Shown here: positions 4,833 to 46,728 of the stretch, piece after piece
Layout: each line of letters opens with the position of its first letter
Numbering within the stretch: position 1 is the stretch's first letter
Assembly: GCF_004364345.1 (NCBI RefSeq)
Contig: NZ_SOCA01000003.1
Span: forward strand, 434,001 to 498,000
Reading direction: 5' to 3'
Source: Prosthecobacter fusiformis
GTDB taxonomy: Bacteria; Verrucomicrobiota; Verrucomicrobiia; Verrucomicrobiales; Verrucomicrobiaceae
Length of the DNA: 64,000 nt
Program-made: the position numbers and the translations under genes
Notes under the pieces: generated by a model
What the model saw: only the letters and a program-made list of their open reading frames with translations
Database searches by the model: none
What the model was told of the DNA's origin: nothing

Positions 4833-4855
4833 AGGACGGCAGTTTTCGGCTTGGT

Positions 4856-5011
4856 CTAGGGGAGGAGCATCAGGATGCGTTCGACCTCCTGGGGGCGGTG
4901 CTGGATAGCAAAGACGATGAAGGCGATCCAGCTGGCGACAAAGGTGAGAAAAAAGAGCACGGGCAGGAGCCAGGGCTTATTGAATATAATCTTTCGGATT
5001 GAGAGGTGCAT
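4856..5011 (-). CDS. Small single-span membrane protein between ccoG and the TauE-like gene
   Basis: A 51-aa frame starting MHLSIRKIIFNKPWLLPVLF, with one strong transmembrane helix followed by a short polar tail. The ATG lies inside the last 35 bp of ccoG, so it is probably translated by coupling. No Shine-Dalgarno site is visible. Size and place fit a small accessory subunit in the cbb3-oxidase maturation operon, in the position where FixH or CcoS is often found, but the sequence is too short to assign to either. Confidence 0.6.
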   Translation of the reverse strand: MHLSIRKIIFNKPWLLPVLFFLTFVASWIAFIVFAIQHRPQEVERILMLLP

Positions 5012-24470: not shown

Positions 24471-24576
24471 TTGTCAAAAATCGTCTGTAATAACGAAGTA
24501 CATACTGAGCAATGACTTGAAAAGAATTCAGCTTTCCGATTTAATCGCAAAAAAGAAATCAATTTCCCCCTCCGTC

Positions 24577-27500: not shown

Positions 27501-29832
27501 TTTTAGATCGGTTTTGTTAGATCGTCCGGTCGCAACACGGCCTCCGATGCCTTCAGACACTGGTTACGAATCCAGTGCGACTGGTTCAACTCACTCCCAA
27601 GTGCTCAATTTGAATTTAGTATCGAACTTCTTTACCTGGGAGCATGGCCAACCCCTTGAATTTCAAGGAGGGAACATTGAAATTAAAATCTATGACCACC
27701 ATGTGAATGCTGGCACTACAGACGATCCCGTCCAGATTATACAATTCAACATGCTAGATGGTCAGTTTCCTGCACCGGATTTGGTGGTGGTGGGCACGTC
27801 CGGGATGGACTTGGTCGACAAAAGTGGAAAACAGTATACTCATCCCGTGATCCAAGCACCTCATTGGTGGGCATTTCATAAGGATGGAGTTTTCCGCACC
27901 AAAGACGGTGAACTCCGTGGTAAAGAACTTCGAGGGCGTTTATTTAAATATACATCGCCTGACCCCAATGGTGGAAGTGTGGCGAAAGTGCCAGACATTG
28001 ATAAATTTGACATATATCATCAATGCATGCCAGGAGCGCATGCTTTAATTTATTCCGGTGACTTAGATAATTTTAAAGACGTTGTGATACAGCCCAAGGA
28101 AAAGCTTTACGAGGACAAAATGCTACGTATTGCCTACGGGCCAAATGAGACATTGGTGCCTGCACGTGCTACAGTTGATGACCAAAGTTGGAACCGCCCT
28201 TGGCATTTTGGTACTGATACAGTTCGTGCTTTGCAACCCCCTTATGGTGATGCTCGTCTAATTGCTGGCAAGTACAAGGTGGAACCTTCAGATTGGCGTC
28301 CTCATCGTTTTTGGAACGACCAAAATGAGTACATGGCTCATAACTTTTCTGGATACAATGCGGGTGGTGAACCTGGGTTTGACCGAGGAATATCTAATAT
28401 GGCTCTGGTATCTACAGCGAACAATCAATCGCGCGGCCTGCCTGTGAATGTTACGGCTAAGCCTGAACGCACTCCAGATGCTCCTCATGGTACCAGCAAT
28501 CCAAACTCAGGGCATCTTAAAATGCAGAGATATTACGATTTTGACGATTCGAATCCCGGGGGGCGGGTTGGACCCTTCATCAATAAAGTGGATGAGGGCA
28601 ATTACGCCGTATATACAGAGAAGTTATCAACATGGACGCAAGCGATGAAATGGCGGTTCACGTACTTTAAAGGTGCGGATACAAATGCAGCTTATGCCAA
28701 CTCGACAGGAAGCTATTTCAGTCCGAACCGTATGGTCTCTTCCCCCGTTGTGATGGGTTCACTTCCTTCTCGTCTTTGGGATGCCAATGGGGAGGGGGCA
28801 TGGACGAATCTTTTGTTCCGGCCTTATGTCCCTGTTGATGCTGGGGAGTCAGGAAGTCTCGTAACGCCCGCTACCTCTCACCCTGGACAGGCATCTCCGC
28901 CTGATCATTACCTGCTGGATCTCTTCTGGATGCCCGTGGTAGAACCCTATGCCATCAGCGAGCCTTTATCCACAGCGGGCAAGATTAATCTAAATTATCA
29001 AATCATGCCGTTTACTCACATTCGTCGCGCTACCGCAGTGCATGCGGCGATGAAAGGCGAACTGATGGCAGCATTGCCCAATGCAAGTTATGAGATGTCG
29101 AAAGATGTTTCGAACAGTTGGAGTAGGGATGGCCAGACTGAACCTAGATTCCGTAGTGAGACAAACGGCAACCATTACTGGCACCGGGAGATCGTAATCG
29201 ACCGCTTTTATCCTGAAACACAATTATGGTGGGAACAGGGCCTAGCGGAACGCGTGCAGGGGACTCTGCGCCAGTTCGAAGAGCGCTTTAACTTCGGGCG
29301 GGGTGAAATGCTGGGTGCCACCGGAAACACGACTGCTGATGCCAGCTTCAGAGGTGGGCTGTTCCGTACGACCTCCCAACTTTGTGAAATGCACCTCATC
29401 CCAGGCAAAGTAGATACAGGTGCAAATGTGACTGCTACAGAAATGAGCGGTACCAAATCAACCAGAGATAATGCGTTGAGTAAATTCTGGGGTAAACATG
29501 CAGCGACTGGAGACAACACGCGCGAAAGGCCCTACTCAAATCTTTACGCCAAGTTCACGACTCGGTCGAATACCTTCAAGGTCCATGTAAGGTCTCAGGC
29601 GATACGCAAAGCGTTGCGCTCTGTGGACCACGATAAGTTTGACCCGGATAAAGACTTGGTGAGCGGAGAATTCCGCGGGTCCTTCCTGCTGGAGCGCTAC
29701 ATTGATCAGGCGGATCTCTCGAATCCACAAAACAATGTGGATTATGCCGCTGCTTCAAACCCTTTCGCGCTAAAACCTCTGGAAAGCTACTATCGCTTCC
29801 GTGTTCTTGAATCGAAGCGCTTCGCCCCGTAA
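24577..29832 (+). CDS. Verru_Chthon cassette protein A (GspK-like large pseudopilin)
   Basis: 1,751 aa from ATG 24577 (a TTG at 24517 would add 20 residues). A short basic leader precedes the hydrophobic helix RHQGLALIIVLSMLALATIV. This resembles the N-terminus of type II secretion GspK, which lacks the usual F-T-L-x-E site. A huge soluble region follows, with N-I-N-T-A-S (VNINTASEP) near residue 310, also reminiscent of GspK. It is by far the largest of the A-D pilins. It follows the giant gene after a terminator, and B-giant-A-C-D lie in one direction. It may form the tip complex with C and D; this is inference from the pseudopilin analogy. Confidence 0.75.
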   Translation: MKHIRLFLADARRHQGLALIIVLSMLALATIVILAFLSVADTENKATNVYSASQSSRRFADTAVNMVISQIRAGSARETPGTPVIHATQPGAVRKYAASGDFLAGYKLFSDKDMVYRATGNSGQVNQAEFDFVRNSEPPADWNQGNNLARYVDLNDPVIKGVATGAENNKAQPQIYFPIIDPRAGQDIDPTGQETPVEGFSYETKTALTSATLSGVAVGQDTAPIVKPAADTLANNINTLRLAMPVQWLYVLKDGTVGYLNDGLNFMVLDNQEGGLPGGPSVSPDEDYGVPSEVNPIVGRVAFWTDDETCKVNINTASEPTYVGQPIYYHERDHQWGDYPPATREYQRYPGHPATVALSSILYPNPLQSANRSLDTYGRAGPVANKARALAVKERIYDLIPRIHTGGSIAGTRTFEADDFDSNDTEVGSMVAIEDAMNERLYSSVDELLFDQTNDNTSRILNNAQANAEVTLFNKTTLERASAFLTASSRASEINLFGIPRIAMWPLPDASSSPAVPGTGYDSLIRFCSRLGSASNLYAFQRKLSRTIPGVGNGAFGDISIQRNLDLLNMLDKMLGNLPEGSQQPFPTKSIIGETASTFEAKLTEDNTHQLIVSMFDYIRSINLYDSFLVPSSREDWPEASSSANIYDVREDTEQFKTYTPGVYRNSSTTVDSNTGISYKEDPRRDRFFPGHGQVTPSLHPSWKVTNGGSVKGFGRFISISEIGIQFICTADGQNDMYSWRIPEKDNSAPESNVEKPRQFKIPEIALEALDADPRVSGGRTALVVDGTEYDATSQTKIFDVEQNNVPGFAPTGRYLTNLEAIHWSKTGAGANTKLFKNRFYSNYPPLSNPDTYVDYGIASGSSKPLSIEDPNHGKYRENHPGFQRENWNYTLDFDTPLETNQKRIQAMLQLEFFTPSVGYTEINPEYTIVLSGSDVSNLRVGNNVLFSTTTDLVLKSGNSLYLQGSSPEIGGFVSFRSVLLDRPVATRPPMPSDTGYESSATGSTHSQVLNLNLVSNFFTWEHGQPLEFQGGNIEIKIYDHHVNAGTTDDPVQIIQFNMLDGQFPAPDLVVVGTSGMDLVDKSGKQYTHPVIQAPHWWAFHKDGVFRTKDGELRGKELRGRLFKYTSPDPNGGSVAKVPDIDKFDIYHQCMPGAHALIYSGDLDNFKDVVIQPKEKLYEDKMLRIAYGPNETLVPARATVDDQSWNRPWHFGTDTVRALQPPYGDARLIAGKYKVEPSDWRPHRFWNDQNEYMAHNFSGYNAGGEPGFDRGISNMALVSTANNQSRGLPVNVTAKPERTPDAPHGTSNPNSGHLKMQRYYDFDDSNPGGRVGPFINKVDEGNYAVYTEKLSTWTQAMKWRFTYFKGADTNAAYANSTGSYFSPNRMVSSPVVMGSLPSRLWDANGEGAWTNLLFRPYVPVDAGESGSLVTPATSHPGQASPPDHYLLDLFWMPVVEPYAISEPLSTAGKINLNYQIMPFTHIRRATAVHAAMKGELMAALPNASYEMSKDVSNSWSRDGQTEPRFRSETNGNHYWHREIVIDRFYPETQLWWEQGLAERVQGTLRQFEERFNFGRGEMLGATGNTTADASFRGGLFRTTSQLCEMHLIPGKVDTGANVTATEMSGTKSTRDNALSKFWGKHAATGDNTRERPYSNLYAKFTTRSNTFKVHVRSQAIRKALRSVDHDKFDPDKDLVSGEFRGSFLLERYIDQADLSNPQNNVDYAAASNPFALKPLESYYRFRVLESKRFAP

Positions 29833-29853
29833 CGCTAAATTTCTCAGACGACC

Positions 29854-30972
29854 ATGATGAGTCCTCAACATTCTTTTGCCCCTGGGCGCAAAGCTTTCAC
29901 GCTAGTGGAAGTGCTGGTTTCTATGACGGTCTTGCTCATCCTGCTGCTCATCAGCGCCCAGGTGATCGGGACTGTACAGAGCACATGGACCTCCTCCAAT
30001 GCACGGGTTAGCCAATTCCGAGAGGCGCGAACGGCTTTTGACATCATCACCCGTAATCTCAGCCAAGCCACGCTGAATACTTATGTGGATTATGATGACA
30101 GCTATTTGAAGGACGGTGTCTCTAATGCAAACATCAGCACAAGAGCTCCCACTAAATATCTACGTAAATCGGATCTGCGCTTTATTTGCGGACCTTCCGT
30201 CGCGGCTGAAGGTTCGCCGATGGATGGGCTGCTGGCCCAGGCGGGTGGGCGCGCTTATTCACCCGGGCATGCAGTGTTCTTTCAAGCTCCGTTGGGTGTG
30301 TCCCATGATCCGGCTTATGTCGGACTGGACCGGCTGCTTTGCGGCAGGGGCTATTTTGTCCAATACACCTCGGATGAATTCTTCCGTCCAGATGTGCTGC
30401 CAGTTGGGGTGCCAAATTATCGTTATCGTTTGATGGAGTTTTCGCCTCCGGCGGAGAAAAATCTCATCTATGATGAAAACGACAAGTTGAAATGGTTTCA
30501 ACAGGCTGGAGCGCCCATTCCAAATGAAGAGACACCTATTGAACGTGGCTTTACCCGGCCCATCGCGGACAATATTGTGGCGTTGATTATTTCTCCTCAG
30601 GTTGAGACTGCTGCTGCCCTTGCGGGCACGGCGGACGGTACGGCCGCTGCTACATATCAGTCTGTTTACAGCTATGACTCTGCCGGGGAACTGATCCCCT
30701 TGCCTGAAGATGATCGCCATCGCCTTCCGCCCTTGGTCAAAGTGGTGCTTGTGGCCATTGATGAGCGGACTGCGGACCGGCTCAGCCAGGAAGGCACCCC
30801 AGGTACACCCCCTTTTGGCAATGACATCGCTGACCTGATTGGTGGCGATGACAATGAAGTAGATGTAAACGAAACTGTGGAAGCGATCGCCGCTAAACTT
30901 CGGGAACGGCGCATCAATTACCGCATTTTTTCATCTACCGTGTCACTCCGTGGTGCCAAATGGAGTCGTTAG
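29854..30972 (+). CDS. Verru_Chthon cassette protein C (pilin-like)
   Basis: 372 aa with a classical prepilin site: a basic leader, K-A-F-T-L-V-E at residues 13-19 and a hydrophobic helix (VLVSMTVLLILLLISAQVIG). The rest is a soluble domain. The resemblance is to GspJ-type minor pseudopilins. It starts 21 bp after cassette A and ends 21 bp before cassette D, so A, C and D are very likely one operon. Confidence 0.8.
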   Translation: MMSPQHSFAPGRKAFTLVEVLVSMTVLLILLLISAQVIGTVQSTWTSSNARVSQFREARTAFDIITRNLSQATLNTYVDYDDSYLKDGVSNANISTRAPTKYLRKSDLRFICGPSVAAEGSPMDGLLAQAGGRAYSPGHAVFFQAPLGVSHDPAYVGLDRLLCGRGYFVQYTSDEFFRPDVLPVGVPNYRYRLMEFSPPAEKNLIYDENDKLKWFQQAGAPIPNEETPIERGFTRPIADNIVALIISPQVETAAALAGTADGTAAATYQSVYSYDSAGELIPLPEDDRHRLPPLVKVVLVAIDERTADRLSQEGTPGTPPFGNDIADLIGGDDNEVDVNETVEAIAAKLRERRINYRIFSSTVSLRGAKWSR

Positions 30973-30993
30973 TTCACCCTATAGTTTTGTGCC

Positions 30994-31698
30994 ATGAGAA
31001 CTTCGTTTTCTAACCGCCGCTCAGCCGCAGCCTTCACTTTGGTGGAGATGCTCACCGTGGTGGGTATTATCTCCCTTTTAATTGCCTTAGTGACGCCCAC
31101 TTTGCTGGATGTGGTGCGCTCCACCCGGCTCAGTTCTGCGGGGGATGCTCTGGTAAACCGGATTAGCCTTGCCCAGCAGAGTGCCGTCTCCATGAGTGCG
31201 GAAGTGGAAATGCGTTTTTATCGCTATGCAGACACCACGGCTGATCGTCCAGAAGACAGGTCCTTCTATGCATATCAAGTCGTGCAGACATTGCCCAACG
31301 GGCTAGAAAAACCCCTTTCAGACCCTTATTTTATGGAGTCTGGGGTGATCGTTTCTGCTCAGGAACAGCTTTCTCCTCTTCTCCAAACCACAGTGCCGCA
31401 GGCGGAAACTGTGAATGGGAATTACCTTTTTACACCCCCAGGAAGTGCCAGCGGTGGAGATGTGGAATATGCATCGCTGAGATTTTATCCAGATGGGGGC
31501 ATGCGTGTGCTCACCGAGGCGGCAGTCGATAATCAGGATGCAGAAGAAGTGGCCAATGCATTCACTATTCCTGCATTTGATCTTAGCTTCCTCATCATTG
31601 TGGAATCCAGTGAGTCCCAGAAGACCGAGCCGCCAAAGAATTATTACTGCATTCAGATTGACTCGTACACAGGCAGAACCCGTGTTTACCGGCCATGA
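30994..31698 (+). CDS. Verru_Chthon cassette protein D (pilin-like)
   Basis: 234 aa. The prepilin motif A-A-F-T-L-V-E lies at residues 12-18, followed by MLTVVGIISLLIALVTPTLL. The first helix continues into an amphipathic stretch, as in GspH-type pseudopilins. Last gene of the cassette, 58 bp before guaB on the same strand, with no obvious terminator between them. Confidence 0.8.
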   Translation: MRTSFSNRRSAAAFTLVEMLTVVGIISLLIALVTPTLLDVVRSTRLSSAGDALVNRISLAQQSAVSMSAEVEMRFYRYADTTADRPEDRSFYAYQVVQTLPNGLEKPLSDPYFMESGVIVSAQEQLSPLLQTTVPQAETVNGNYLFTPPGSASGGDVEYASLRFYPDGGMRVLTEAAVDNQDAEEVANAFTIPAFDLSFLIIVESSESQKTEPPKNYYCIQIDSYTGRTRVYRP

Positions 31699-34950: not shown

Positions 34951-37002
34951 ATGTCTGCTGTCTCCATAGAGCAAGAAGCTGCCATTGCCGAAATGCGGCA
35001 AGTGGTGGCGGGTCTTGTTTATCTGGGGGTCGGAGCCCGCACTCAGGAATATGACACCGCCCTGCATTTTGTCGCATTCCGCCACAACCTCAGTGCGGAT
35101 GAATTGCGCAGGCTGTTGCAGGGGTTTGCCACTCAGGCACTTGACGATCCGGCACTGAACCTCCGGGAAAAACTCAGTGCTTTGCGTGAGGCTGGACAGT
35201 TCATTGCCGCGCGTGATTTTGCTCTGGAGGCAGCCACACGCTTAGCCCTGGAGTTTCAGGATTCCTCTTCACGCCATGATGAGATGGAAATGCTGCTGGA
35301 GGCCGCAAAGGCCGCATACTCTCTGCACGACTTTGATCAGGCCCGTGCCCTGGCAGAAAAGGCCGCGTCTCTGGCCGATCAGGGAAAAAACTTCGCCCTA
35401 TGGGCCAGTGCTCGGCATGAGGCAGGCCTCGCCATGTCGAGCATGGAGGGCGAAGAAGAAGCGGCCCTCTCCATCTATGAGGAACTGGTGACCCGAAGTA
35501 TAGAGACACTGGGCGCAGAGCATCGTGATACTCTCGCCCGGCGCCATGCTCTGGCACTGGTTTTAAAAGACCAATACCAGATCGATGATGCAGTAAAGGA
35601 ACACCGGGCGGTCGCGGCCATTCAGGAACGTGTGCTGGGCATGGAGCATCCAGATACCTTGAAAAGCAGAGTGAGCCTGGGCATCGCTTTGAAAGAGCAA
35701 GGCCAATACTCACTGGCAGAGCAAGAGCATAGGGCCATACTTGCCATCCAGGAGAAGGTTCTCGGTCCGGCGCACCCTGACACCCTGGCCAGCCGGTACA
35801 ATCTAGCTGCTGCCTTGCAAGAACAAGGACGGCACATCACCGCACACGACGAGTATGAAACAATCCTAGCCTTGCGTCTGCAGGTGCTGGGAGAGGAGCA
35901 CCCGGATACGTTAAACAGCCGGCTCCAATGGGTGCACCGGCTCAGGGACCAGGGCAGATACCTGGAGGCAGAGGCACAGATCCGTGTCATGCTGGCCACT
36001 TACGAGCGTGTGCTGGGCGCGGATCACCAGGAGACCTTAAACTATCGCTCCTTGCTTGCTCTACTGCTCGACGACCAAGGAAAGGATGAGGAAGCCAACA
36101 AGGAGCATCGGACGATCCTGGCCGCTAGGGAGCAGGAACTTGGTGCGGAGCATCCCACCGTTTTAAACAGCCGTAGCCGTCTGGCCTTTGCCCTTGTTGC
36201 GACCTCTCAACAGGAGGCGGCCGAGGAGGGCGAGGCTGAATTGCGGACAGTGCTGGCTGTTCAGGAACGTGTCCTCGGCCGGGAGCATGCGGAGACTGTG
36301 TTTAGCCGTTACAATCTCGGACTTGCCCTGCTATCCCGGCAAAAATACGCCGAGGCGGAGGCCGAACTCCGGGCCACGGTGGTTATTAAACAGCGGGTAC
36401 AGGGTACCACGCATCCTGATACCCTGAACAGCAGGGCGCGCGTGGCCCTCGCCCTCGTGTGCCAGCAGAAGTTCGCAGAGGCTGAGGCCGAATATCGCGC
36501 CATATGGACCCTCCAGGAACGCTCGCAGGGTGCGGAGCATCCAGACACCCTGCATACCCGGTTGATGCTGGCTTTGATGCTCAAATGCCTGCTTCGGTAC
36601 CAGGAATCTGAGGCAGAGTATGAGGCACTGTTGGGCATTTGGGAACGCCTGCTGGAGCCCGACCATCCAGATATCCTGAAAGGCCGCTACCAGCTGGCTC
36701 ATCTTCTCGAAGATCAAGACAGGCATGCCGAGGCCGAGGCGGTCCACCGTGGGCTGCTCGCCAGCAGGGAGCGCACTCAGGGAACTGAGCATCCGGAGGT
36801 ACTTCAGAGCTGCTTCGATCTGGCTTTAGTCTTAGAAAAACAGGGTCGGCTGGATGAAGCATTACTTTTCATGCGGCGCTCAGCGAACGGGCGTTCAGAC
36901 TTCTTGGGAGCAGACCACCCGGACACCGTTTCAGCCGTCGGCGGCTGCCAGCATCTCCAGCGGAAGCTGGAATGGGAGCGAGAACAGGCCTCCGCGTTAT
37001 AA
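34951..37002 (+). CDS. Tetratricopeptide-repeat protein (kinesin-light-chain type)
   Basis: 683 aa. After an N-terminal helical region of ~190 residues there are about eleven 42-residue TPR units with the signature (R/V)-L-G-x-x-H-P-D-T-L-x-S-R-x-x-L-A-x-x-L-x-x-Q-x-x-x-x-E-A-E (examples LGMEHPDTLKSR and GTTHPDTLNSRARVALAL). This is the TPR_10/TPR_12 pattern of kinesin light chains and bacterial NB-ARC/TPR sensors. There is no signal peptide, membrane helix or NTPase domain, so it is a stand-alone cytoplasmic scaffold. The ATG is followed by SAVSIEQEAAIAEMRQ. Partner unknown; the repeats are similar enough that copy number may vary between strains. Confidence 0.8.
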   Translation: MSAVSIEQEAAIAEMRQVVAGLVYLGVGARTQEYDTALHFVAFRHNLSADELRRLLQGFATQALDDPALNLREKLSALREAGQFIAARDFALEAATRLALEFQDSSSRHDEMEMLLEAAKAAYSLHDFDQARALAEKAASLADQGKNFALWASARHEAGLAMSSMEGEEEAALSIYEELVTRSIETLGAEHRDTLARRHALALVLKDQYQIDDAVKEHRAVAAIQERVLGMEHPDTLKSRVSLGIALKEQGQYSLAEQEHRAILAIQEKVLGPAHPDTLASRYNLAAALQEQGRHITAHDEYETILALRLQVLGEEHPDTLNSRLQWVHRLRDQGRYLEAEAQIRVMLATYERVLGADHQETLNYRSLLALLLDDQGKDEEANKEHRTILAAREQELGAEHPTVLNSRSRLAFALVATSQQEAAEEGEAELRTVLAVQERVLGREHAETVFSRYNLGLALLSRQKYAEAEAELRATVVIKQRVQGTTHPDTLNSRARVALALVCQQKFAEAEAEYRAIWTLQERSQGAEHPDTLHTRLMLALMLKCLLRYQESEAEYEALLGIWERLLEPDHPDILKGRYQLAHLLEDQDRHAEAEAVHRGLLASRERTQGTEHPEVLQSCFDLALVLEKQGRLDEALLFMRRSANGRSDFLGADHPDTVSAVGGCQHLQRKLEWEREQASAL

Positions 37003-38410: not shown

Positions 38411-39196
38411 CTATAGCTTTCGTTTGTACCCGTCACAGCGGTTGTGCCAGCCAGCCAGCCAGCGCTGCTCTTTGCGTGCAGCAGGGGCGTTTTGCACCCG
38501 GCGGGAAAGGACAGCTTTCGCGGCATCGGCAAAAGCGGCAGGGGTAGGCTGCTTCATGCCTTCCAGCACTTGGAGCAAGCCCCAGCCCTGGCCATTGTAG
38601 CGCTCCGTGGGGGCGGTACCTTCACCCTTGAAATTCACATAATCAATAAGGCAGAAAGCGCCCTCAGGGGTGGCTAGAAGCATATCAAAATGGGCTTGCA
38701 CCAGACTGGGTTTCTTTGAGCTGGCTTTCATCTTCGGCAGTGCACGCTGGAGCCGGGCGATGATGAATTCTGTCTGCAAGGCAACGGTTTTTGATAAAGT
38801 GGTGCGCAGTGCAGTCTGGCGCGGACCATTTTTATCCCCCTCAAAAGAAGCCTTGCTTCCCCAGGGGCAGGGTCCCTTTGCCCAAGCTGGCATTTTGACC
38901 CCTCGTGCCTCCATGAAGGAGACGAGTGGAGGGAAACTTTCCTCAAACGGTCCTTTCTTGCCTGTAGAATACCAGATAAAATGGCCGATTCCCAAGGATG
39001 CAAAATCTTCTCCAGTATTCCAGCTCGTCAGACCCGCCACTGTGCCTGCGCATTCGTTTTGCCAGATGCGCTGTCCCACACGCTGAAGTTGTGAAGGGCT
39101 GAGCTGAGGGCTGGCGCTGGGGGCAGATCCAGGCACGGTGCAGGCTGCAAGAAGCGAGCTGGACACCAAAAGTTTTAAAATTCCGCGTAAACTCAT
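38411..39196 (-). CDS. Putative lipoprotein, possibly lysozyme-like
   Basis: 261 aa with a lipoprotein signal (LVSSSLLAAC, Cys ~19). The soluble domain has a conserved-looking block R-I-W-Q-N-E-C-A-G-T and W-N-T-G-E-D-F-A-S-L-G-I-G-H-F-I-W-Y, then E-E-S-F-P, and near the C-terminus YNGQGWGLLQVLEGM. A Glu early in a helix followed by a G-x-G-H motif recalls lysozyme-fold muramidases, but this is a weak structural analogy. Two Cys pairs suggest a periplasmic disulfide. Next upstream of the zinc-ribbon gene on the same strand. Confidence 0.55.
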   Translation of the reverse strand: MSLRGILKLLVSSSLLAACTVPGSAPSASPQLSPSQLQRVGQRIWQNECAGTVAGLTSWNTGEDFASLGIGHFIWYSTGKKGPFEESFPPLVSFMEARGVKMPAWAKGPCPWGSKASFEGDKNGPRQTALRTTLSKTVALQTEFIIARLQRALPKMKASSKKPSLVQAHFDMLLATPEGAFCLIDYVNFKGEGTAPTERYNGQGWGLLQVLEGMKQPTPAAFADAAKAVLSRRVQNAPAARKEQRWLAGWHNRCDGYKRKL

Positions 39197-39347: not shown

Positions 39348-42300
39348 ATGCCTTATTTGGCCTTCAACCTCAATGACGGAAACGAATTCGTCTTCGATAT
39401 CCTCGAAGAGCGTCTCTCCATCGGCAGAGACGCAAAAAACGATATCGTCATTGATAATACCTACATCTCTGGCTTCCACGCGGAGTTCATCCGTCAGGCT
39501 GACGGTGGGTATGAGTTGATGGACTTGAAGTCCTCCAATGGCACTTTTCTGAATGGCAAACGCATTGAGCGCGCCCAGGTAAAGGGAGGGGACAAGATCC
39601 GCTTCGGACAGTTGGATTCAAGATTTCGCGAGCGTACGCCCAAGGGCACCGCTCCTTCGGCAGAGACCAAACCTCCCGCTGTGGGAAAAGGCCAGCCTGC
39701 CAGATCTGACGGACGACGTGGTGATACGGAATCTGTGCCCGTGCGCGAAAGCGCTGAGAAGCCCCTAACGAACCTGCTCGAGCCGACCAAAGCCCCGCTA
39801 GCACGTCCGGACATGGGCAGCAAGGGACCTTCTTTTGCTCCTCCGCAAAACACTCCGATCCAACGTCCGCAAGCACTCGATGCCGCTCTTCAAAAACAGG
39901 CAGAGGAACTACGTGAGGAAGTGGCCAAGCTGAAGCAGGAACGTGATCTGCTACGGCAGGAAAACGAAAAGGAATCCCTTCGCCGCAACGAAATGCGGGC
40001 TTTGGAAAAGCAGATTGAGGAACGCCAGAAAGCCGCCTCTGAAGCTGAGACAAAATTAAATTCTCTCAAAGCCACACTGGCGACATCCGAAGCGGACGTT
40101 TCTAAATGGGAGGCCAAAAGGCGCGAGACGGCCAATCTGGACAGCCAGCTAGAGTCCACCCGCAGCGAGCTGGTGAAGGTGCAGGAAGACGTGACCATGG
40201 CCCGCAAAAGCCTGCAATCCGTGCATGACGAGGCCGAAAAAGCGAGCGCCGCACGAAACTCTCTGCTCAAGGACAAAGACTTGGCCGTCGAGGAGCTGGC
40301 CATTCTGCGGAAGCAGATCAGCGAAGCAGGTGCCGCGTCTGTCGAGACTGCCCAACTCCAGGAAACCTCCCTCAAATCCGAAGCCGAAATCCAGTCGCTA
40401 ACTGAGCAAATATCCGCTCGCACCAACGATCTGGGGCAACTTCAGCAAAAGGTCGAAGCTCTGCGCCAGGAAGAATCCCAGCTCAGTACCAAGGTCCAGT
40501 CGCTGACCAGTCAGCAGAGCGCCCTGGCCTCCATCGACGAGAAAGTCCGTACCAAGTCGGAAGAACTCAAAATCCTGGAGAGCCGCGCCGCAGATCTCAC
40601 CAACAAACTGGATGACCTCGCCGCCACCGATACCCATCTGAGTAGCGCCACCGAATCGCTGAAAGCGGTCGAATCCCACAAATCTGAACTCACCGCTGCC
40701 ATCTCCGCCATGGGCCAGGAGAGGGATAGCCTGACTCGGGATCTCCTGGCCGTGACGGAAAAGGGCAAGGCCCAGCACACACTCACGCTGGCTTTGACCA
40801 CCCGCCGCCAGACTCTGGAAAAAGAGATCCATGAGGCAGAGGAACAAAAAAGTTCCCTCACCGCTGAGCTAGCGAAGGTGAGAGAAGACCTCAGCCGAGC
40901 AAAAACGGCACTGTCGGAGCACCAGCAAGAGGCTGAGGCCGCTGAAGCAAAAAGCCAGGAATTCACAACACGAGCGGCTGAGCAGGATAGGCAGCATGCA
41001 AGTGTGCAGAAAGACCTGGCTGCCCTCCAGAGCCAGATCAGCACTGCAAAAACGGAGCTGGAAAAAATCACCGCAGAAACGACGGCTCAAAAGCAGGCAT
41101 GTGAAACCGCTGCCTCCGCAGAAAAATCACATCGTGCCCAGGCCAGCGAGCTTCAGGGGAAAATCACCACCCTTGAGGCCCTTTTGGCCACCCTTGTCGC
41201 GACCCAGACAGAGCGTCAGCACGGGGTTTCCACCGCTGAGCAAAAAGCCTCCGCCCTACAGACCCAGACCACGGAGGTGACCCGCCGACTAGCGACCTTG
41301 GAAACGGAACTGACCCAGAAACGCCAGGAACTGGCGACTCAGGAAGCGCGTCTCGGGGAGCTGACCCAGACAGAAAAAAAACTCGCGGAGGCTCAGTCCG
41401 CCCTGACCGCCGCCACTCAAAATCTGGAAAAAGCCCAGAGCGACACGGCCCATCTCAAGTCGGAGCAGGCCGATCTTGAAAAACGCCTTATCCCTCTCCG
41501 CACGGATGCCGCGAGTCTGCAAACCGAGCTGACCGCCAAACTCAAAGAGCTCTCCGAAAGCGAAGCCCGCGTGGCTGCCCTCACCCAGAAGGCCGCAGAC
41601 TTGGAAGCCAAGACCAAGGATCTCACATCCACTCAAGAGCAATTGGCCAAAGCCCGCGCCGCCCTGGCTCAAACCATGGGTGAGCAGGAGAAAGTGACGG
41701 CCCTCCTTCTGCCTTTAACCGCCCAGCGGGAAGATCACGAAAAAGTCCTGCCTGGGCTCAAGTCAGAAATTGAGAGCTTGCGCGCTGAGCTGGGTAACCT
41801 CATGCGTGACAAGCAGACCACCGCTGCCGCTTTGGAAAAAAACCAGACCGACCGCAAAGCTGCCTTCGACCAGGTCGAAATCCTGCGTGCCGAATCCGCC
41901 AATCTGGAAAAACTGCTCAATGATAAACGCAGTAATCTGGAAGTCGAAACCCAGGCCAAACTCGCTGAAGCAAGTGCCGCCGAGACTCGCTTGCGTGAAT
42001 TGCAGACGCAAATCACCGCTGCCGAAAAACGCACCGAAGGCCTCGCTGAAGCGGAGCAAAAGCTCACCCATGCCCTGGCAGGTCTGAAGGAGGCGGAGAA
42101 ACAGCGCCTTATCGAAGAGAAGCAGCTCGCTGAACTCGCCGGGCAGCAAGAGTCCATGCGCAAGGACATTGCGAAATCTGAGGCCGAATCAAAGAATCTC
42201 ACCGCGCAGATAGCAGACCTCGCCAAAAAAGCCAAGGTGGAAGAAGCCCGCGCAACAGAGACCGAAAGCCGCCTTCAAAAAGCCAGCGCTGCCGCGCAAG

Positions 42301-43736
42301 TCGCCGAGACCAAACGCATTGAGGCCGAAGCCGCCATTGCCAAAGCTCGGGACGAGGAGAAGGCCCTGCGCAAGCAAATCCCCACGCTGAATACAGAGCT
42401 GGCCGGTCTTCAGGCCATGCTTGTGAGCCTGACAAAGGAGCGGGAAGAGGCCTCCCAGTTCGTGACCCGTTTGAACGTCACCACAGAAAACTCCAACAAG
42501 AGGCTCTCCGAGGTTCAGCAGCAAATTTCCCAGCTCGAAGATGCGCATAAAGTCCGCGAAGAGCGCCTGATGAAAGCCCAGGAGGAAGTGGACAAAGAGG
42601 CCGCCCGTCTCAAAGCCGCTCAGGAAGCCTCCCGCGCCGCTGAGCAAACTCTCCAAGACCTGGAAAAAGAAGTCCGGGAATCCCGCCAAAGGACCGATGC
42701 CGCCCGCACCCAGGCCACCGGTTTGGAAACCGAGCTCAACACCCGCATGGACCGCGTGGAAAAATTAAAGCTCGAAGAAACCCGCCTCATCAAAGAGGTG
42801 GAGGCTCAAAAGCTGGAAGTCCAGGGTACCGGAGCCGTCCTGGCCGAGCTTCACGATAAAATCCGCCACGAAGAAAGCCGCCTGGGCGAATTCACAAATA
42901 CGGGAGGCAAGATCATTACACTCGGAGCCGCCCTGGCTGGCCTAGAGGCCCGTCAGAATGAGGCCGGGAAATCCCTGCGCGATGCGGCTGAGCGGGAGCT
43001 CTCCCTCCAGGTCAAAATCAACGCACTCCAGGAATCACTCAACCGGGAAGCCGCCCGTGTCGAGCACGTCAAAAAAGAACGCGCCTCCGTAGAGGCGGAT
43101 CTCGTCAGCTTCACGGAGCTTGCGGAAAAACAAGCCGCCTCCATCAGGGCCCAGGAGATCGAGCAGCGTCGGCAGCTTACCGACCTGGAAAGCCAGATCC
43201 GCGATCAAGCCGCCATGGTGGACCGCATCAAGACAGAGCTCAGCACCCTCAATGACCGCCGGGCCGAATTTGCCCAGGCTGAGGCCCAGCTCCACCATTG
43301 GAAAGAAATCGAAGCCCGTCTTCGCGGCCAGCTTCTGGAGCTGGAGGAAAAGCACGAAATCCTGCGCCGTGGCCTCCCCACCGAGGAATCTACCGTCGTC
43401 ATGTTCGCCAATGACATCATCAAGCGCGTTGACCTCATTGATGCCCTCAGCTCCCGCTACGCCGGGCACAATGGGGGAGATGTCGTGGCCCAGCTCCGCA
43501 CTCTGCGCCATTCCTTTGAGGACATCCTGCTTCAGCACGGCATCAGCGAGTTCGATATCGGCTCCGGCACAGAGGTGGATGTGGAACTGCGCAAACGCAT
43601 CACCGTGGTCGAGTCCGTCCCTGGTAAAAATAAACCACGCGTGGTGGAAACCTGCCGTTCCGGGTTTATCTACTCCCGTGAGGAAGGCCATGAGCTCATC
43701 CTCCGCAAGGTGGAGGTCAAAACCTCCAGCCAGTAG
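39348..43736 (+). CDS. FHA-domain, long coiled-coil protein with a GrpE-like C-terminal domain
   Basis: 1,462 aa. Residues ~15-90 form a forkhead-associated domain (LSIGRDAKNDIVIDN, then H-A-E-F, L-K-S-S-N-G-T-F-L-N-G), which in other proteins binds phosphothreonine. A Pro-rich linker leads into ~1,150 residues of almost unbroken heptad coiled coil rich in Glu, Lys, Ala and Gln. The last ~115 residues resemble the GrpE exchange-factor head: FEDILLQHGISEFDIGSG, then V-D-V-E-L-R-K-R-I-T-V-V-E, then SGFIYSREEGHELILRKVEV. The gene for an Hsp70-like ATPase lies 235 bp downstream. I infer a phosphorylation-controlled, filament-like partner of that Hsp70. No signal peptide. The GrpE call rests on motif resemblance only. 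Confidence 0.7.
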   Translation: MPYLAFNLNDGNEFVFDILEERLSIGRDAKNDIVIDNTYISGFHAEFIRQADGGYELMDLKSSNGTFLNGKRIERAQVKGGDKIRFGQLDSRFRERTPKGTAPSAETKPPAVGKGQPARSDGRRGDTESVPVRESAEKPLTNLLEPTKAPLARPDMGSKGPSFAPPQNTPIQRPQALDAALQKQAEELREEVAKLKQERDLLRQENEKESLRRNEMRALEKQIEERQKAASEAETKLNSLKATLATSEADVSKWEAKRRETANLDSQLESTRSELVKVQEDVTMARKSLQSVHDEAEKASAARNSLLKDKDLAVEELAILRKQISEAGAASVETAQLQETSLKSEAEIQSLTEQISARTNDLGQLQQKVEALRQEESQLSTKVQSLTSQQSALASIDEKVRTKSEELKILESRAADLTNKLDDLAATDTHLSSATESLKAVESHKSELTAAISAMGQERDSLTRDLLAVTEKGKAQHTLTLALTTRRQTLEKEIHEAEEQKSSLTAELAKVREDLSRAKTALSEHQQEAEAAEAKSQEFTTRAAEQDRQHASVQKDLAALQSQISTAKTELEKITAETTAQKQACETAASAEKSHRAQASELQGKITTLEALLATLVATQTERQHGVSTAEQKASALQTQTTEVTRRLATLETELTQKRQELATQEARLGELTQTEKKLAEAQSALTAATQNLEKAQSDTAHLKSEQADLEKRLIPLRTDAASLQTELTAKLKELSESEARVAALTQKAADLEAKTKDLTSTQEQLAKARAALAQTMGEQEKVTALLLPLTAQREDHEKVLPGLKSEIESLRAELGNLMRDKQTTAAALEKNQTDRKAAFDQVEILRAESANLEKLLNDKRSNLEVETQAKLAEASAAETRLRELQTQITAAEKRTEGLAEAEQKLTHALAGLKEAEKQRLIEEKQLAELAGQQESMRKDIAKSEAESKNLTAQIADLAKKAKVEEARATETESRLQKASAAAQVAETKRIEAEAAIAKARDEEKALRKQIPTLNTELAGLQAMLVSLTKEREEASQFVTRLNVTTENSNKRLSEVQQQISQLEDAHKVREERLMKAQEEVDKEAARLKAAQEASRAAEQTLQDLEKEVRESRQRTDAARTQATGLETELNTRMDRVEKLKLEETRLIKEVEAQKLEVQGTGAVLAELHDKIRHEESRLGEFTNTGGKIITLGAALAGLEARQNEAGKSLRDAAERELSLQVKINALQESLNREAARVEHVKKERASVEADLVSFTELAEKQAASIRAQEIEQRRQLTDLESQIRDQAAMVDRIKTELSTLNDRRAEFAQAEAQLHHWKEIEARLRGQLLELEEKHEILRRGLPTEESTVVMFANDIIKRVDLIDALSSRYAGHNGGDVVAQLRTLRHSFEDILLQHGISEFDIGSGTEVDVELRKRITVVESVPGKNKPRVVETCRSGFIYSREEGHELILRKVEVKTSSQ

Positions 43737-43758
43737 TTTAAAGTTCTTGTTTCAGAAC

Positions 43759-43953
43759 ATGCAACCTGTCGCCCAGCAAATTTTCAGGACTATCGCCTTT
43801 TTGATGGTGGTCATGTCCCTGCCAATGCTTCTGGTCTCCCCAGGATTTGTGAGTGGGCTCACCCTGCTGGCCGGGGTGATGCTTTTTGGCGTCGCTCATC
43901 AAATTGGTCCTTCATCCGTTCTCAAAAGCGTCCGCGCCCCTAACCTCATTTGA
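43759..43953 (+). CDS. Small two-helix membrane protein
   Basis: 64 aa from ATG 43759, 22 bp after the coiled-coil gene and 18 bp before the Hsp70-like gene. Two hydrophobic segments (IFRTIAFLMVVMSLPMLLV and LTLLAGVMLFGVAHQI) are joined by a short turn. It is in the right place to be an operon member and may tether the complex to the membrane. Family unknown. Confidence 0.6.
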   Translation: MQPVAQQIFRTIAFLMVVMSLPMLLVSPGFVSGLTLLAGVMLFGVAHQIGPSSVLKSVRAPNLI

Positions 43954-43971
43954 TTTTTCCACTCACCGATT

Positions 43972-45462
43972 ATGGCAGAATACGTTGGCATTGATCTTGG
44001 CACCACGCTCTCGGGCCTGGCTTATTTGAAACCTGATGGCAATCCGGAGATCGTCCCCAATTCCGATGGCGAGCGCCTCACTCCCTCCGTTGTCTTTTTT
44101 GAAGGGCATGAGGATGTGAAACTCGTCGGCAGTCCCGCCCGCGACGGGGGAGATCCAGACCGCACCATCTTTCAGATCAAGCGCCACATGGACGATCCCG
44201 AGTACCTCGTCGAGATCGATGGCAAAAAATGGACCCCCGCTGAGATTTCCGCCCTTATCCTCTCCAAGCTGAAACGGGACTGCTCCAAGATCATCGGAGA
44301 CATCGAAGAGGTGGTCATCACCGTCCCGGCTAACTTTAACGAACTCGCCCGCAAAAGCACCATCGCCGCTGCTGAGATGGCTGGCATGAAGGTCAAGCGC
44401 CTTGTCAATGAACCGACCGCCGCCGCTGTTTATTATGCCCACAATCAGGGCGTGCAGGGACGTATCCTCGTCTATGACCTTGGTGGGGGCACGCTGGATG
44501 TCACCATCCTGAATGTGGAAAAGGACACCATCCGCATCCTCACCAGCGAAGGCGCCCGCCACCTGGGCGGCAGCAATTTTGACGACATGCTCCTGGCCGC
44601 CTATGCAGAGCAATACACCAAGCAGACTGGCGCCCCGCTCTACAGTGACGAGCGCCACCGCCGCCGCGTCCTCCTGGCTACGGAAGACGCCAAGAAAATG
44701 CTCTCCAAACTCCAGCGTGTGAATGATACCGTCGCTAATGACAAAAACGACGGCCTCGCTCGCATTGACCTCACTCGCGAAACTTTTGAGAAACTCATCC
44801 GCCACATGCTCACCCGCACCGTCATGCTGGTGGAGCAGGCACTCGATTCTGCCAATCTCAAGGTTGCGGATATCGACCACGTCGTCCTCGTCGGTGGCTC
44901 CACCCGCATCCCCAAGGTGAAAACCGTACTGGAAAAGATGTTTTCCAAAACGCCCAAATCCTGTGGAAATGTGGATGAATGCGTCGCCCTCGGAGCCGCT
45001 CTTTTCGCCAAAAAATCCTCTCGCATCCAGGAAGTGTGCAACGCCAGCTACGGCACCGTCGCCATGGTTTACAATGCCAAGACCGGTGAGGAGAAGCTGA
45101 TGAACTCCGTCGTCATTCCCAAAAACACCCCCATCCCATGTTCCCGCACCCAGGTTTACCAAACCAGTGAGGACAACGAGCGGGTCATCGAGGTGGACAT
45201 CACCCAGGGGGAGGATGAAGACGCCAAGTTTGTGGACATCATAGGTCGCATCACCCTGGAGGTGCCACCAAACCGGCCCAAAGGCTGTGAGGTGGCCGTC
45301 ACCTTCAGTTATGATGAAAACCAGCGTGTGCGCGCACTCGTTGTGGATAAGCAATCAGGCCGCAGCCGCGAAGTCGCCGTCAGCTATAAAGGTGCCGGCG
45401 TACTTTCCGATGAAGACCTCAAGCGTAAAAGCGCCCACCTGCGCACCATGCGCATCGAATAG
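43972..45462 (+). CDS. Hsp70-family ATPase (DnaK-like, short substrate domain)
   Basis: 496 aa. The nucleotide-binding domain is intact: phosphate-1 loop VGIDLGTTLSGLAYL near residue 5, phosphate-2 VYDLGGGTLDVTIL near 165, adenosine motif VVLVGGSTRIPKV near 304. The beta substrate-binding part is present but the alpha-helical lid of DnaK (~640 aa total) is missing, so this is a specialised short Hsp70. Its operon partner carries a GrpE-like head, so the pair could form a dedicated chaperone cycle. No DnaJ is seen nearby. Not the housekeeping dnaK by context. Confidence 0.9.
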   Translation: MAEYVGIDLGTTLSGLAYLKPDGNPEIVPNSDGERLTPSVVFFEGHEDVKLVGSPARDGGDPDRTIFQIKRHMDDPEYLVEIDGKKWTPAEISALILSKLKRDCSKIIGDIEEVVITVPANFNELARKSTIAAAEMAGMKVKRLVNEPTAAAVYYAHNQGVQGRILVYDLGGGTLDVTILNVEKDTIRILTSEGARHLGGSNFDDMLLAAYAEQYTKQTGAPLYSDERHRRRVLLATEDAKKMLSKLQRVNDTVANDKNDGLARIDLTRETFEKLIRHMLTRTVMLVEQALDSANLKVADIDHVVLVGGSTRIPKVKTVLEKMFSKTPKSCGNVDECVALGAALFAKKSSRIQEVCNASYGTVAMVYNAKTGEEKLMNSVVIPKNTPIPCSRTQVYQTSEDNERVIEVDITQGEDEDAKFVDIIGRITLEVPPNRPKGCEVAVTFSYDENQRVRALVVDKQSGRSREVAVSYKGAGVLSDEDLKRKSAHLRTMRIE

Positions 45463-45525: not shown

Positions 45526-45870
45526 ATGTTTAAAAAGATCCTCCAATCGCTCTCCAAGTCCCAGGCTGCCAAACCGGCTGCTGCTGCTGCACCTGTGAGC
45601 AAGCCCGCCGAAACCGCCAAGCCTGCAGGGCCGGTGCCGAAGGCTGGCAAGGCCGCAGCTATCGCGACCCCAGCCGTGGCTAAGACGCCTGAGGAGCTGT
45701 GTGAAATCGGTCCCAAGATGCCCAAGGACCAGATTCATTCCCGGCTGAAGCTACTGTATCGCCGTTACAACCGCAGTGCTTCCAGCCTGGATCCAAAGAT
45801 CCGGGGTGAAGCCGATTCCATGTTGGACGCCATCGTCCGCGTTCGCGAAAAACACTTCGGCGAAATCTAA
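45526..45870 (+). CDS. Small basic Ala/Pro-rich protein at the end of the Hsp70 operon
   Basis: 114 aa. Residues 10-55 are a flexible Ala/Pro/Lys-rich segment, followed by a compact helical domain (EELCEIGPKMPKDQIHSRLK to the C-terminus). It starts 63 bp after the Hsp70-like gene on the same strand and ends just before the tandem palindromic repeats. I do not recognise it; a small adaptor is possible. Confidence 0.6.
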   Translation: MFKKILQSLSKSQAAKPAAAAAPVSKPAETAKPAGPVPKAGKAAAIATPAVAKTPEELCEIGPKMPKDQIHSRLKLLYRRYNRSASSLDPKIRGEADSMLDAIVRVREKHFGEI

Positions 45871-45884
45871 GCACGCCCATACCC

Positions 45885-46050
45885 GCGCCCGCCAGGGCGT
45901 GGGGGTTTGCGCCCCGTAGCTGCGCCCGCCAGGGCGTTGGGCTTTGCGTCCCGTGGCTGCGCCCGCCAGGGCGTGGGGGTTTCGCCCCGTAGCTGCGCCC
46001 GCCAGGGCGTGGGGGGATTGCGTCTCGTAGCTGCGCCCGCCAGGGCGTGG
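45885..46050. repeat. Five ~37-bp tandem repeats with palindromic core
   Basis: The core GCGCCCGCCAGGGCGT begins at 45885, 45922, 45959, 45995 and 46033, spaced 36-38 bp, with linkers like GGGGGTTTGCGCCCCGTAGC. Each core is an imperfect hairpin (GCGCCC / GGGCGT around GCCA). The array lies between convergent genes, which fits a REP-type element or transcription barrier. Copy sequences differ by 1-4 bases. Confidence 0.85.
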
Positions 46051-46110
46051 GGGTCGGAGGCCTCGAAACCAAAGCCACCTCCCTCCACCCATAGGCGGCT
46101 AGGCCAACCC

Positions 46111-46728
46111 TCAGCTCACCGCGCGGTCCGTCTGGAAAATGCCCGCATTGGCCAGGAACATTTCCCAATCACGCACCTGGTAAGTATTGCGGATGAGCTG
46201 GGTCACCGGGATTTCACGCGGGGCCGCAGGGCGGCGCAGAAGCTTCAGGCCAGCTTCCTCAGGCAGCTTGCTACCCTTCTTGCTGTTCACCTTTTTATCA
46301 GCCAGCACACAGTTGTCCCACGTGCTTTTGCCCCCTCGGGACACCGGCACAATATGGTCGATGTTTCCTTCGTTAGGCTTCAGCTTGCGGCCAGTGTACT
46401 GGCACACGCCTCCGTCACGTTCCCAGATGGCCTTGGCGCAGAATTTCGGACGACGCTTCGGCACCCGGTCAAAGCGGGCCAGCACCAGCACCGTCGGCAC
46501 CCGCACAGGACCGTGCACCGTGCCGATGGAGTTGTCCCCTTCGTTCACAGGTAGCTTCATCCAGTCCTCCCAGGTCACCGGCGTCATGTCATCATCGGCT
46601 GAAATCTTCAGCGCTGTGGCATTCCCCGCAGCCATCATGCTGAAGGCATCCGCAGGGGACTTCACTCCGATGGCCTGCCAGTTTCGATTGAGAACCAGGA
46701 CCGTAGTTTTGTTCAACACATCATTCAT
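46111..46728 (-). CDS. HNH endonuclease family protein
   Basis: 205 aa. The C-terminal half has an HNH fold: FCAKAIWERDGGVCQYTG, then D124-H125 in NIDHIVPVSRGG, Asn139 in TWDNCVLADKKVN and Asn148. The Cys pair spacing (C109, C140) is not the full zinc-binding quartet. The N-terminal ~90 residues (VLVLNRNWQAIGVKSPADAF) occur in many bacterial stand-alone HNH proteins of unknown target. A good Shine-Dalgarno AAGGAGA lies 7 nt before the ATG. It is the first protein gene downstream of the tRNA array on the same strand, separated by hairpins. Whether it cuts DNA or RNA cannot be seen. Confidence 0.8.
   Translation of the reverse strand: MNDVLNKTTVLVLNRNWQAIGVKSPADAFSMMAAGNATALKISADDDMTPVTWEDWMKLPVNEGDNSIGTVHGPVRVPTVLVLARFDRVPKRRPKFCAKAIWERDGGVCQYTGRKLKPNEGNIDHIVPVSRGGKSTWDNCVLADKKVNSKKGSKLPEEAGLKLLRRPAAPREIPVTQLIRNTYQVRDWEMFLANAGIFQTDRAVS

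What the first reader, a model, noticed from the sequence alone, without database searches (positions are those of the whole stretch)
39348..45462. FHA/coiled-coil protein with GrpE-like head beside a lidless Hsp70
GrpE is normally a ~200-aa nucleotide exchange factor. Here a GrpE-like C-terminal domain ends a 1,462-aa protein with a phosphopeptide-binding FHA domain and ~1,150 residues of coiled coil, followed by a small membrane protein and a 496-aa Hsp70 lacking the lid. This suggests a dedicated, possibly kinase-controlled chaperone machine at the membrane.
Basis: partly seen in the sequence, partly recalled or inferred. Interest (0 to 1): 0.68.

Follow-up and report, generated by a model that had tools for sequence, protein, structure and literature searches.

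The report
Phosphopeptide-reading GrpE with lidless Hsp70 operon
One family of bacteria carries its own dedicated Hsp70 chaperone set in which the part that reloads the chaperone is built onto a very long rod with a phosphoprotein-reading head, which suggests a chaperone that is sent to particular places by protein phosphorylation.

Summary
The 1,462-aa ORF has a conserved FHA domain, about 1,100 residues of heptad coiled coil and a C-terminal GrpE domain: Pfam GrpE above cut-off on the last 185 aa, and all seven PDB fold matches at E<=0.001 are GrpE. The Hsp70 ends without a lid in 40 of 40 complete orthologues and lacks DnaK's VLLLD linker. The 64-aa membrane ORF is not shared by relatives, so a membrane location is unsupported. 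The GrpE-like domain is in 63 of 68 genomes of the family (Verrucomicrobiaceae) and, by profile, in 0 of 282 sampled genomes of the phylum outside it. Most likely this is a dedicated Hsp70 machine whose exchange factor is tethered by a long rod to a phospho-Thr reader. Exchange activity and direct binding are untested. Two genomes keep the FHA-GrpE protein without this Hsp70, which counts against an obligate partnership.

The parts
39348..43736 (+). FHA / long coiled coil / GrpE-like protein, 1,462 aa
39417..39608 (+). FHA domain, residues 24-87
   Evidence: Pfam FHA E 2.1e-19; phosphopeptide-binding positions kept in 42-44 of 44
39888..43247 (+). coiled-coil rod, about residues 181-1300
   Evidence: heptad periodicity in 12 of 13 blocks, 4 prolines; 0 of 500 shuffles
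43251..43721 (+). GrpE-like domain, residues 1302-1458
   Evidence: Pfam GrpE; AlphaFold2 model; Foldseek and VIA-align matches to GrpE
43972..45462 (+). lidless Hsp70, 496 aa: NBD about residues 1-345, altered linker about 346-362, SBD-beta about 363-478
   Evidence: Pfam HSP70 E 4.9e-103; alignments; no residues beyond 496 in 40 of 40
45526..45870 (+). third conserved gene, 114 aa, follows the Hsp70
   Evidence: conserved in order and alignment
45526..45561 (+). N-terminal amphipathic segment (MFKKILQSLSKS) of the third protein
   Evidence: alignment; Eisenberg moment 0.66; helix 3-10 in the model at low confidence
45688..45858 (+). candidate J-like helical domain without HPD, residues about 55-111
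   Evidence: model; J domains frequent among non-significant fold matches; profile comparison and shuffles

Best explanation
The three genes encode a dedicated Hsp70 machine of Verrucomicrobiaceae. The first protein dimerises through a long parallel coiled coil. Its N-terminal FHA heads dock on a phosphorylated target, and its C-terminal GrpE head, at the other end of a rod of roughly 165 nm, holds the dedicated Hsp70 and speeds its ADP release. The Hsp70 keeps an ATPase domain and a beta-type substrate domain but has no lid and no VLLLD linker, so it should bind clients weakly and turn over fast. The small third protein, perhaps an HPD-less J-like protein with an amphipathic N-terminus, positions the Hsp70 rather than triggering ATP hydrolysis in the usual way. 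Shown: domain content, fold of the GrpE head (predicted), conserved absence of lid and linker, conserved order, Hsp70 and third gene staying together. Inferred: dimerisation, binding between the proteins, exchange activity, phospho-dependence, role of the third protein.
For: GrpE: 28.2 bits against cut-off 25.8 on the isolated region, 18 of 19 members; model pLDDT 88.2; all 7 PDB matches at E<=0.001, and the top 12 rows, are GrpE entries; VIA-align Z 12.6 to 9.9 for the six top rows, all GrpE entries, next unrelated row 7.2. Lid: absent in 40 of 40; VLLLD in 0 of 44 orthologous frames. Order: 40 of 46; all three genes together in 32 of 40 unnamed-genome loci, largely the same species. In six genomes where FHA gene and Hsp70 are apart (G006, G007, G008, G012, G028, G031) the third gene lies directly behind the Hsp70. 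Among 47 good genomes: both genes 43, FHA-GrpE only 2, Hsp70 only 0, neither 2 (by hand 6/1081 = 0.0056, not corrected for relatedness). FHA residues conserved.
Against: G058 and the single-contig genome G067 keep the FHA-GrpE protein but have neither the lidless Hsp70 nor a detectable third gene. In G067 the GrpE-like domain shows no decay (89% to L128, FHA 96%). In G058 it has drifted (57% to the window, against 72%, 73% and 81% for L108, L111, L087), but its FHA domain is at 74%, as in L111, which has the Hsp70. In six genomes the two genes are not neighbours. The upstream lipoprotein gene stays with the FHA gene where the Hsp70 does not. Identity to GrpE of known structure is 9-21%, a PDB sequence-profile search found no GrpE, pTM is 0.56, the five models differ in mean pLDDT from 88.2 to 61.6, Foldseek TM-scores are 0.32-0.50 over the query, and the VIA tool warns that Z under about 13 can be common among long helices. 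No contact or activity was tested.
Confidence: 0.5

Rival explanations
1. The GrpE-like head is only a docking and dimerisation module: it ties the lidless Hsp70 to a long FHA scaffold but no longer exchanges nucleotide, so the protein is a scaffold or cytoskeletal-type rod with the Hsp70 as passenger or building block.
For: The rod length varies widely between orthologues (821-2,388 aa from the matched start; two frames of 665 and 901 aa that break before the end are left out) while both ends are conserved. The NBD IIB loop that in DnaK faces GrpE (recalled) is four residues shorter than in the main DnaK of the same genome, though the second DnaK-type protein, L004, has the same gap.
Against: The C-terminal region stays under strong constraint: 32 invariant columns in 19 sequences of 185 residues, 28 of them in residues 72-180, 14 of these in the beta head that contacts Hsp70 in known complexes (contact recalled).
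Confidence: 0.22
2. The FHA-GrpE protein works with the general DnaK proteins, and the lidless Hsp70 with its small partner is a separate device that merely shares the operon.
For: G058 and G067 keep the FHA-GrpE protein without the lidless Hsp70; in six genomes the Hsp70 pair sits elsewhere.
Against: Neighbours in 40 of 46 loci; 0 of 47 good genomes have the Hsp70 without the FHA-GrpE protein, although G032 (81% complete) shows an Hsp70 fragment and the third gene at a contig end and no FHA-GrpE end; the genome already has a canonical GrpE next to DnaJ.
Confidence: 0.15
3. The third protein is not J-like but supplies the missing lid in trans: its helical hairpin covers the substrate domain of the lidless Hsp70.
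For: It is encoded directly behind the lidless Hsp70 and stayed with it in six of six relocations; its conserved part is a helical hairpin.
Against: The fold matches that come up repeatedly are J domains (13 of 50 Foldseek rows by title, 14 with 9dyv, whose title names Hsp70 and Hsp40; 15 of 50 VIA rows), though none is significant; the profile aligns with J domains in register.
Confidence: 0.1

Closest known systems
GrpE nucleotide exchange factors (E. coli GrpE in 1dkg, Geobacillus 4ani, GrpEL1 in 9bls)
   Same: Fold of the head and long helix; Pfam GrpE match; closest folds found.
   Different: Ends a protein of 1,462 aa with FHA and a rod; 9-21% identity in structural alignments; a canonical GrpE (198-aa frame) exists in the same genome.
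DnaK/HscA-type Hsp70
   Same: 33% identity over the alignment to the genome's own DnaK; ATPase motifs aligned.
   Different: No lid, no VLLLD linker (E.CN.SYGT.A instead), a four-residue insertion in the first substrate-domain loop, a shorter IIB loop than the main DnaK.
J domains and HPD-less J-like proteins such as Pam16 (recalled; search listing only)
   Same: Possible helix II / helix III hairpin with the same spacing of core positions (J-domain positions recalled).
   Different: No HPD, no Pfam DnaJ match in any of 16 members, fold matches not significant.
GAP1-N2 GTPase neighbourhoods with Hsp70 and GrpE (eLife 2020, PMC7159879; passages seen)
   Same: Hsp70 with GrpE in a conserved neighbourhood, in a subset with a second Hsp70 without its peptide-binding domain.
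   Different: In the passages seen GrpE is not described as fused to FHA; in our locus no GTPase was found among the ORFs scanned, and SBD-beta is kept.
GrpS, one of two GrpE proteins of Myxococcus xanthus (PMC10313047; passages seen)
   Same: An extra GrpE in a bacterium with many Hsp70s.
   Different: Described in the passages as a GrpE-domain protein, with no FHA rod mentioned; its partner Hsp70 was left open there.

Membership tests
GrpE | Profile match above the curated cut-off | tested here: met
   28.2 bits vs 25.8 on the last 185 aa; but 21.6 in the whole protein and 24.5 in the genome search
GrpE | Fold: long helix, helix bundle, beta head | tested here: met
   relative placing of helix and head uncertain (pTM 0.56)
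GrpE | Binds Hsp70 NBD and releases ADP | not testable with these tools
   no complex prediction, no bench
GrpE | Homodimer | not testable with these tools
   a long heptad rod fits a dimer, not shown
FHA | Profile match and phosphothreonine-binding residues | tested here: met
   assignment of the residues recalled
Hsp70 | Profile match, ATPase domain and SBD-beta present | tested here: met
DnaK (equivalog) | Score above the NCBIfam DnaK cut-off; lid and VLLLD linker | tested here: not met
   366.5 bits vs 648 and 353.2 vs 822.55; lid absent in 40 of 40, VLLLD in 0 of 44
J domain | Pfam DnaJ match | tested here: not met
   0 of 16 members at E<=10
J domain | HPD motif | tested here: not met
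   N in 16 of 16 at the corresponding place
J domain | J fold | tested here: inconclusive
   Foldseek best E 1.1; VIA Z 4.3-5.5 tied with unrelated rows; hhalign probability 10.4, P 0.003; 0 of 300 column shuffles reach 19.1 but the best reach 18.8 and 18.4

The most novel reading that the evidence does not exclude
A complete but rewired Hsp70 system in which all three parts are unorthodox: the exchange factor is fused to a phosphopeptide reader through a rod of more than 100 nm, the Hsp70 has given up both lid and allosteric linker, and the J partner has given up HPD. It would be a chaperone whose place of action is set by phosphorylation and whose cycle is not switched on by the usual J-domain trigger.
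Probability: 0.3. Interest if true: 0.8.

Novelty: new variant of a known kind. Interest (0 to 1): 0.55.

Why it matters
Exchange factors are usually treated as small diffusing proteins, and lid and linker as the core of the Hsp70 cycle. A conserved natural Hsp70 without lid and linker, paired with a GrpE fused to a phosphopeptide reader, would make it testable whether exchange alone can drive a useful Hsp70 cycle and whether phosphorylation can position a bacterial chaperone. Six full-text searches of the open-access library listed no paper that by title, abstract or passages seen describes this arrangement; of their hits only PMC7159879 was opened (passages), and subscription papers are not covered.

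Tried and rejected
Small membrane ORF as part of the machine: rejected, not shared by relatives. Defence system: PADLOC matches of the first protein lie in its coiled coil, and the Hsp70 and third protein have none, so not supported. Third protein as a phycobilisome-linker relative: a PDB match at E 4.9e-5 to Glr2806 is the sum of three repeats of 6-9 bits each (own E-values 23, 47 and 150), taken as chance. Third protein as a Pfam J domain: no match. Third protein as a lid: no row titled as an Hsp70 lid is among the 50 Foldseek and 50 VIA rows shown, which excludes nothing. GrpE by PDB sequence profile: hmmsearch with A2 found no GrpE at E<=10, mainly coiled-coil or helical chains; this is a result against easy sequence recognition. 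A GrpE signature pattern recalled from memory failed on the genome's own GrpE too, so it was dropped. A first FHA pattern was too strict (29 of 43) and was replaced by column counts. The Hsp70 alignment was made from frames pre-filtered to 480-520 aa, which would have hidden orthologues with a lid; the unfiltered count replaces it as evidence. The upstream lipoprotein (38411-39196) had no match in Pfam, NCBIfam or PDB.
Full report
What is there. The ORF at 39348-43736 (+) encodes 1,462 aa and the ORF at 43972-45462 (+) 496 aa. Pfam finds FHA at residues 24-87 (E 2.1e-19) and GrpE at 1302-1458 (E 1.9e-4, 21.6 bits, cut-off 25.8, profile positions 14-162 of 165), and HSP70 in the second protein (E 4.9e-103). 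Scored on the last 185 residues alone, the GrpE match rises to 28.2 bits, above the cut-off, and 18 of 19 aligned orthologous ends match GrpE at E<=1, the best at 2e-11. The 19 rows were picked by eye for spread from 35 left after thinning. Of the 13 blocks of 90 residues from 181 to 1350, 12 have their strongest hydrophobic period at 3.44-3.52; block 271-360 peaks at 6.06; there are four prolines between 180 and 1300. In a shuffle control the heptad signal of residues 181-1300 is reached by 0 of 500 shuffles; block by block it is weakest at 271-360 (29 of 500).

Fold of the C-terminal domain. AlphaFold2 on alignment A2 gives mean pLDDT 88.2 but pTM 0.56, and the five models range from 88.2 to 61.6: a long helix, two shorter helices and a six-strand head. 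Foldseek against the PDB returns seven matches at E<=0.001, all GrpE entries; the first 12 rows are all GrpE entries. TM-scores over the query are only 0.32-0.50 with large rmsd, so the local fold matches but the angle between helix and head does not. VIA-align gives Z 12.6, 12.5, 12.0, 11.8, 11.7 and 9.9 for the six top rows, all GrpE entries, then 7.2 for an unrelated chain; the tool warns that Z under about 13 may be common among long helices. Against this, a PDB sequence search with the profile found no GrpE at E<=10. I conclude that it is a true but diverged GrpE domain.

The Hsp70. Aligned with the two DnaK-type proteins of the same genome, it stops after the beta substrate domain, and the VLLLD linker is replaced. 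Of 44 named-record loci with an orthologous frame, four are cut or broken before the C-terminus; in the other 40 the frame ends with no residue beyond position 496, and VLLLD occurs in 0 of 44. In an alignment of 41 complete frames (window included, pre-filtered by length) 240 of 496 columns are invariant and the linker reads E.CN.SYGT.A. So the missing lid is not a truncation of one gene. NCBIfam DnaK models score far below their cut-offs (366.5 vs 648; 353.2 vs 822.55).

The third gene. ORF 45526-45870 (114 aa) follows the Hsp70. Its ends are conserved: an MFKKILQSLSKS-like start in most rows and a 60-residue C-terminus. In six genomes where the Hsp70 is not behind the FHA gene (G006, G007, G008, G012, G028, G031) the third gene sits directly behind the Hsp70; G032 shows the pair at a contig end. 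It was not detected in G058, G067, G027, G043, G029, G044 or G066, none of which has the full Hsp70. The model, from 16 rows picked out of 37, has mean pLDDT 72.6 and is confident only in the C-terminal half, with helices 67-85 and 90-111. The first four Foldseek rows are J domains and 13 of the 50 rows listed are J domains by title (14 with 9dyv, whose title names Hsp70 and Hsp40), but the best E-value is 1.1. VIA gives 15 J-domain rows of 50 with Z 4.3-5.5, tied with unrelated chains, the top row being one. A profile comparison with 21 J domains of relatives (those of 31 loci that fitted a J pattern with HPD) aligns 25 columns in register, score 19.1, P 0.003, probability 10.4%. 0 of 300 column-shuffled profiles reach 19.1, though the best reach 18.8 and 18.4; the reversed profile scores 11.7 and nine slices of the GrpE-like alignment 7.5-10.9. 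Pfam DnaJ matches none of 16 members. The core positions of helices II and III fall at the same spacing (positions 70, 74, 77, 81, 96, 99, 103, 106, hydrophobic in all rows but one of 16 at 81); the J-domain positions compared are recalled. The HPD place holds an invariant N (16 of 16). J-like is therefore a suggestion, which I put at about one half.

The small membrane ORF. ORF 43759-43953 lies in a 235-bp gap. Among 68 family genomes the gap sequence matched only the own genome at full length; one other had a 25-base match. In 78 loci, with many genomes present twice, the gap is 24-204 bp, and no homologue of the ORF was found in 40 and 51 loci at E<=1e-3. It is not part of the conserved set.

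Distribution. The GrpE-like end was found in 63 of 68 family genomes (45 of 47 good ones). In draws from the phylum it was found in 3 of 194 by single sequence and 6 of 288 by profile, all of these in the family, so 0 of 282 outside it by profile. A pattern scan of 84,980 species genomes gave 51 loci, from records titled as Verrucomicrobia or its genera; two carry the title Akkermansia muciniphila (L106, L109) but are 78% and 76% identical to the window and probably mislabelled. That scan used two short conserved patterns and would miss distant forms. The Hsp70 was found at E<=1e-120 in 58 of 68 (43 of 47 good ones). Of the ten without it, G056, G057 and G032 have pieces of it at contig ends, G066 is 76% complete, G027, G029, G043 and G044 lack both (G029 is 68% and G044 88% complete), and G058 and G067 keep only the FHA-GrpE protein. 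G067 is a single contig of 8,220,857 bases, probably Verrucomicrobium spinosum by its size (recalled). Among the 47 good genomes: 43 both, 2 FHA-GrpE only, 0 Hsp70 only, 2 neither; 6/1081 = 0.0056 by hand, without correction for relatedness.

Gene order. In named-record loci with over 2.2 kb downstream, the Hsp70 and third gene follow in 40 of 46; a lipoprotein-like gene lies divergently upstream in 28 of 39 with over 1.3 kb upstream. The upstream gene stays with the FHA gene also in loci without the Hsp70 (L046, L048, L049, L057, L058), so the FHA protein may have an envelope link of its own.

Coevolution. If the GrpE-like head served only this Hsp70, its loss should relax the head. In G058 the head is 57% identical to the window, against 72%, 73% and 81% for L108, L111 and L087, but its FHA domain is at 74%, against 92%, 74% and 91%. 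In G067 head and FHA remain 89% and 96% identical to L128, which has the Hsp70. This test is mixed and does not prove dependence.

Phosphorylation. FHA positions R27, S41, H44 and N64 are kept in 42, 42, 44 and 42 of 44 (roles recalled), and the genome holds 23 Pkinase match rows, 20 marked over the cut-off, one of these a second piece of the same frame. No kinase came up among the 16 window ORFs or stretches scanned.

Mechanism. GrpE dimerises through its long helix (established knowledge); here that helix continues into a rod of about 1,120 residues, which at 0.15 nm per residue is about 165 nm. The simplest reading is a tethered exchange factor: phosphopeptide-reading heads at one end, the Hsp70 at the other. 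A lidless Hsp70 without the usual linker should bind clients loosely and not respond to a J domain in the usual way, which fits a partner without HPD. Binding, exchange and phospho-dependence are inferred.

Comparison with print. Open-access searches for GrpE with FHA domain, coiled coil and Hsp70, with Verrucomicrobia, for Hsp70 that lacks the lid, GrpE domain with FHA domain, the fusion and a Verrucomicrobiaceae Hsp70 operon gave 1, 2, 0, 0, 0 and 0 papers; of these only PMC7159879 was opened. Listings were not opened further. The nearest printed cases are Hsp70 with GrpE in GAP1-N2 neighbourhoods (PMC7159879, passages) and GrpS of Myxococcus (PMC10313047, passages). PMC8265645 (passages) gives the Hsp70 domain layout.

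One search was made at this stage; it replaced a pre-filtered count of Hsp70 lengths and added the coiled-coil control.

Noticed in passing
window 38411-39196 (-): Lipoprotein-like protein (LAAC lipobox by eye) encoded divergently from the FHA gene in 28 of 39 loci and kept in loci where the Hsp70 is elsewhere or lost; no Pfam, NCBIfam or PDB match.
   Followed up: partly
window 7385-24427 (+): A 5,680-aa ORF with passenger-associated transport repeats and several immunoglobulin-type domains, probably a giant surface protein; the part encoded by 12002-18001 was not scanned.
   Followed up: partly
window 24517-31698 (+): A 1,771-aa ORF without a Pfam match at E<=0.001, followed by two ORFs with N-terminal methylation motifs (pseudopilin-like; the second just under its cut-off).
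   Followed up: no
window 34951-37002 (+): 683-aa TPR protein resembling the FxSxx-COOH system TPR protein (E 1.2e-62, 212.5 bits, below that model's cut-off of 300).
   Followed up: no
L057 3465-6434 (G067): Where relatives carry the Hsp70, this genome has repeated sequence (recurring minus-strand readings) and, by eye, a transposase-like ORF at 4682-5314, so the loss may be due to an insertion.
   Followed up: no
window 45680-46170: Short repeated units (ALAGAATGRNPH-like readings, seen by eye) between the third gene and the HNH gene.
   Followed up: no
L050 2798-5302 (G058): Shortened FHA-GrpE protein (835-aa frame) with a drifted GrpE-like end in a genome without the Hsp70.
   Followed up: partly
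L032-type loci: L074 and L097, L054 and L126: In two relatives the FHA gene is split into two overlapping frames, by a frameshift or an assembly error.
   Followed up: no
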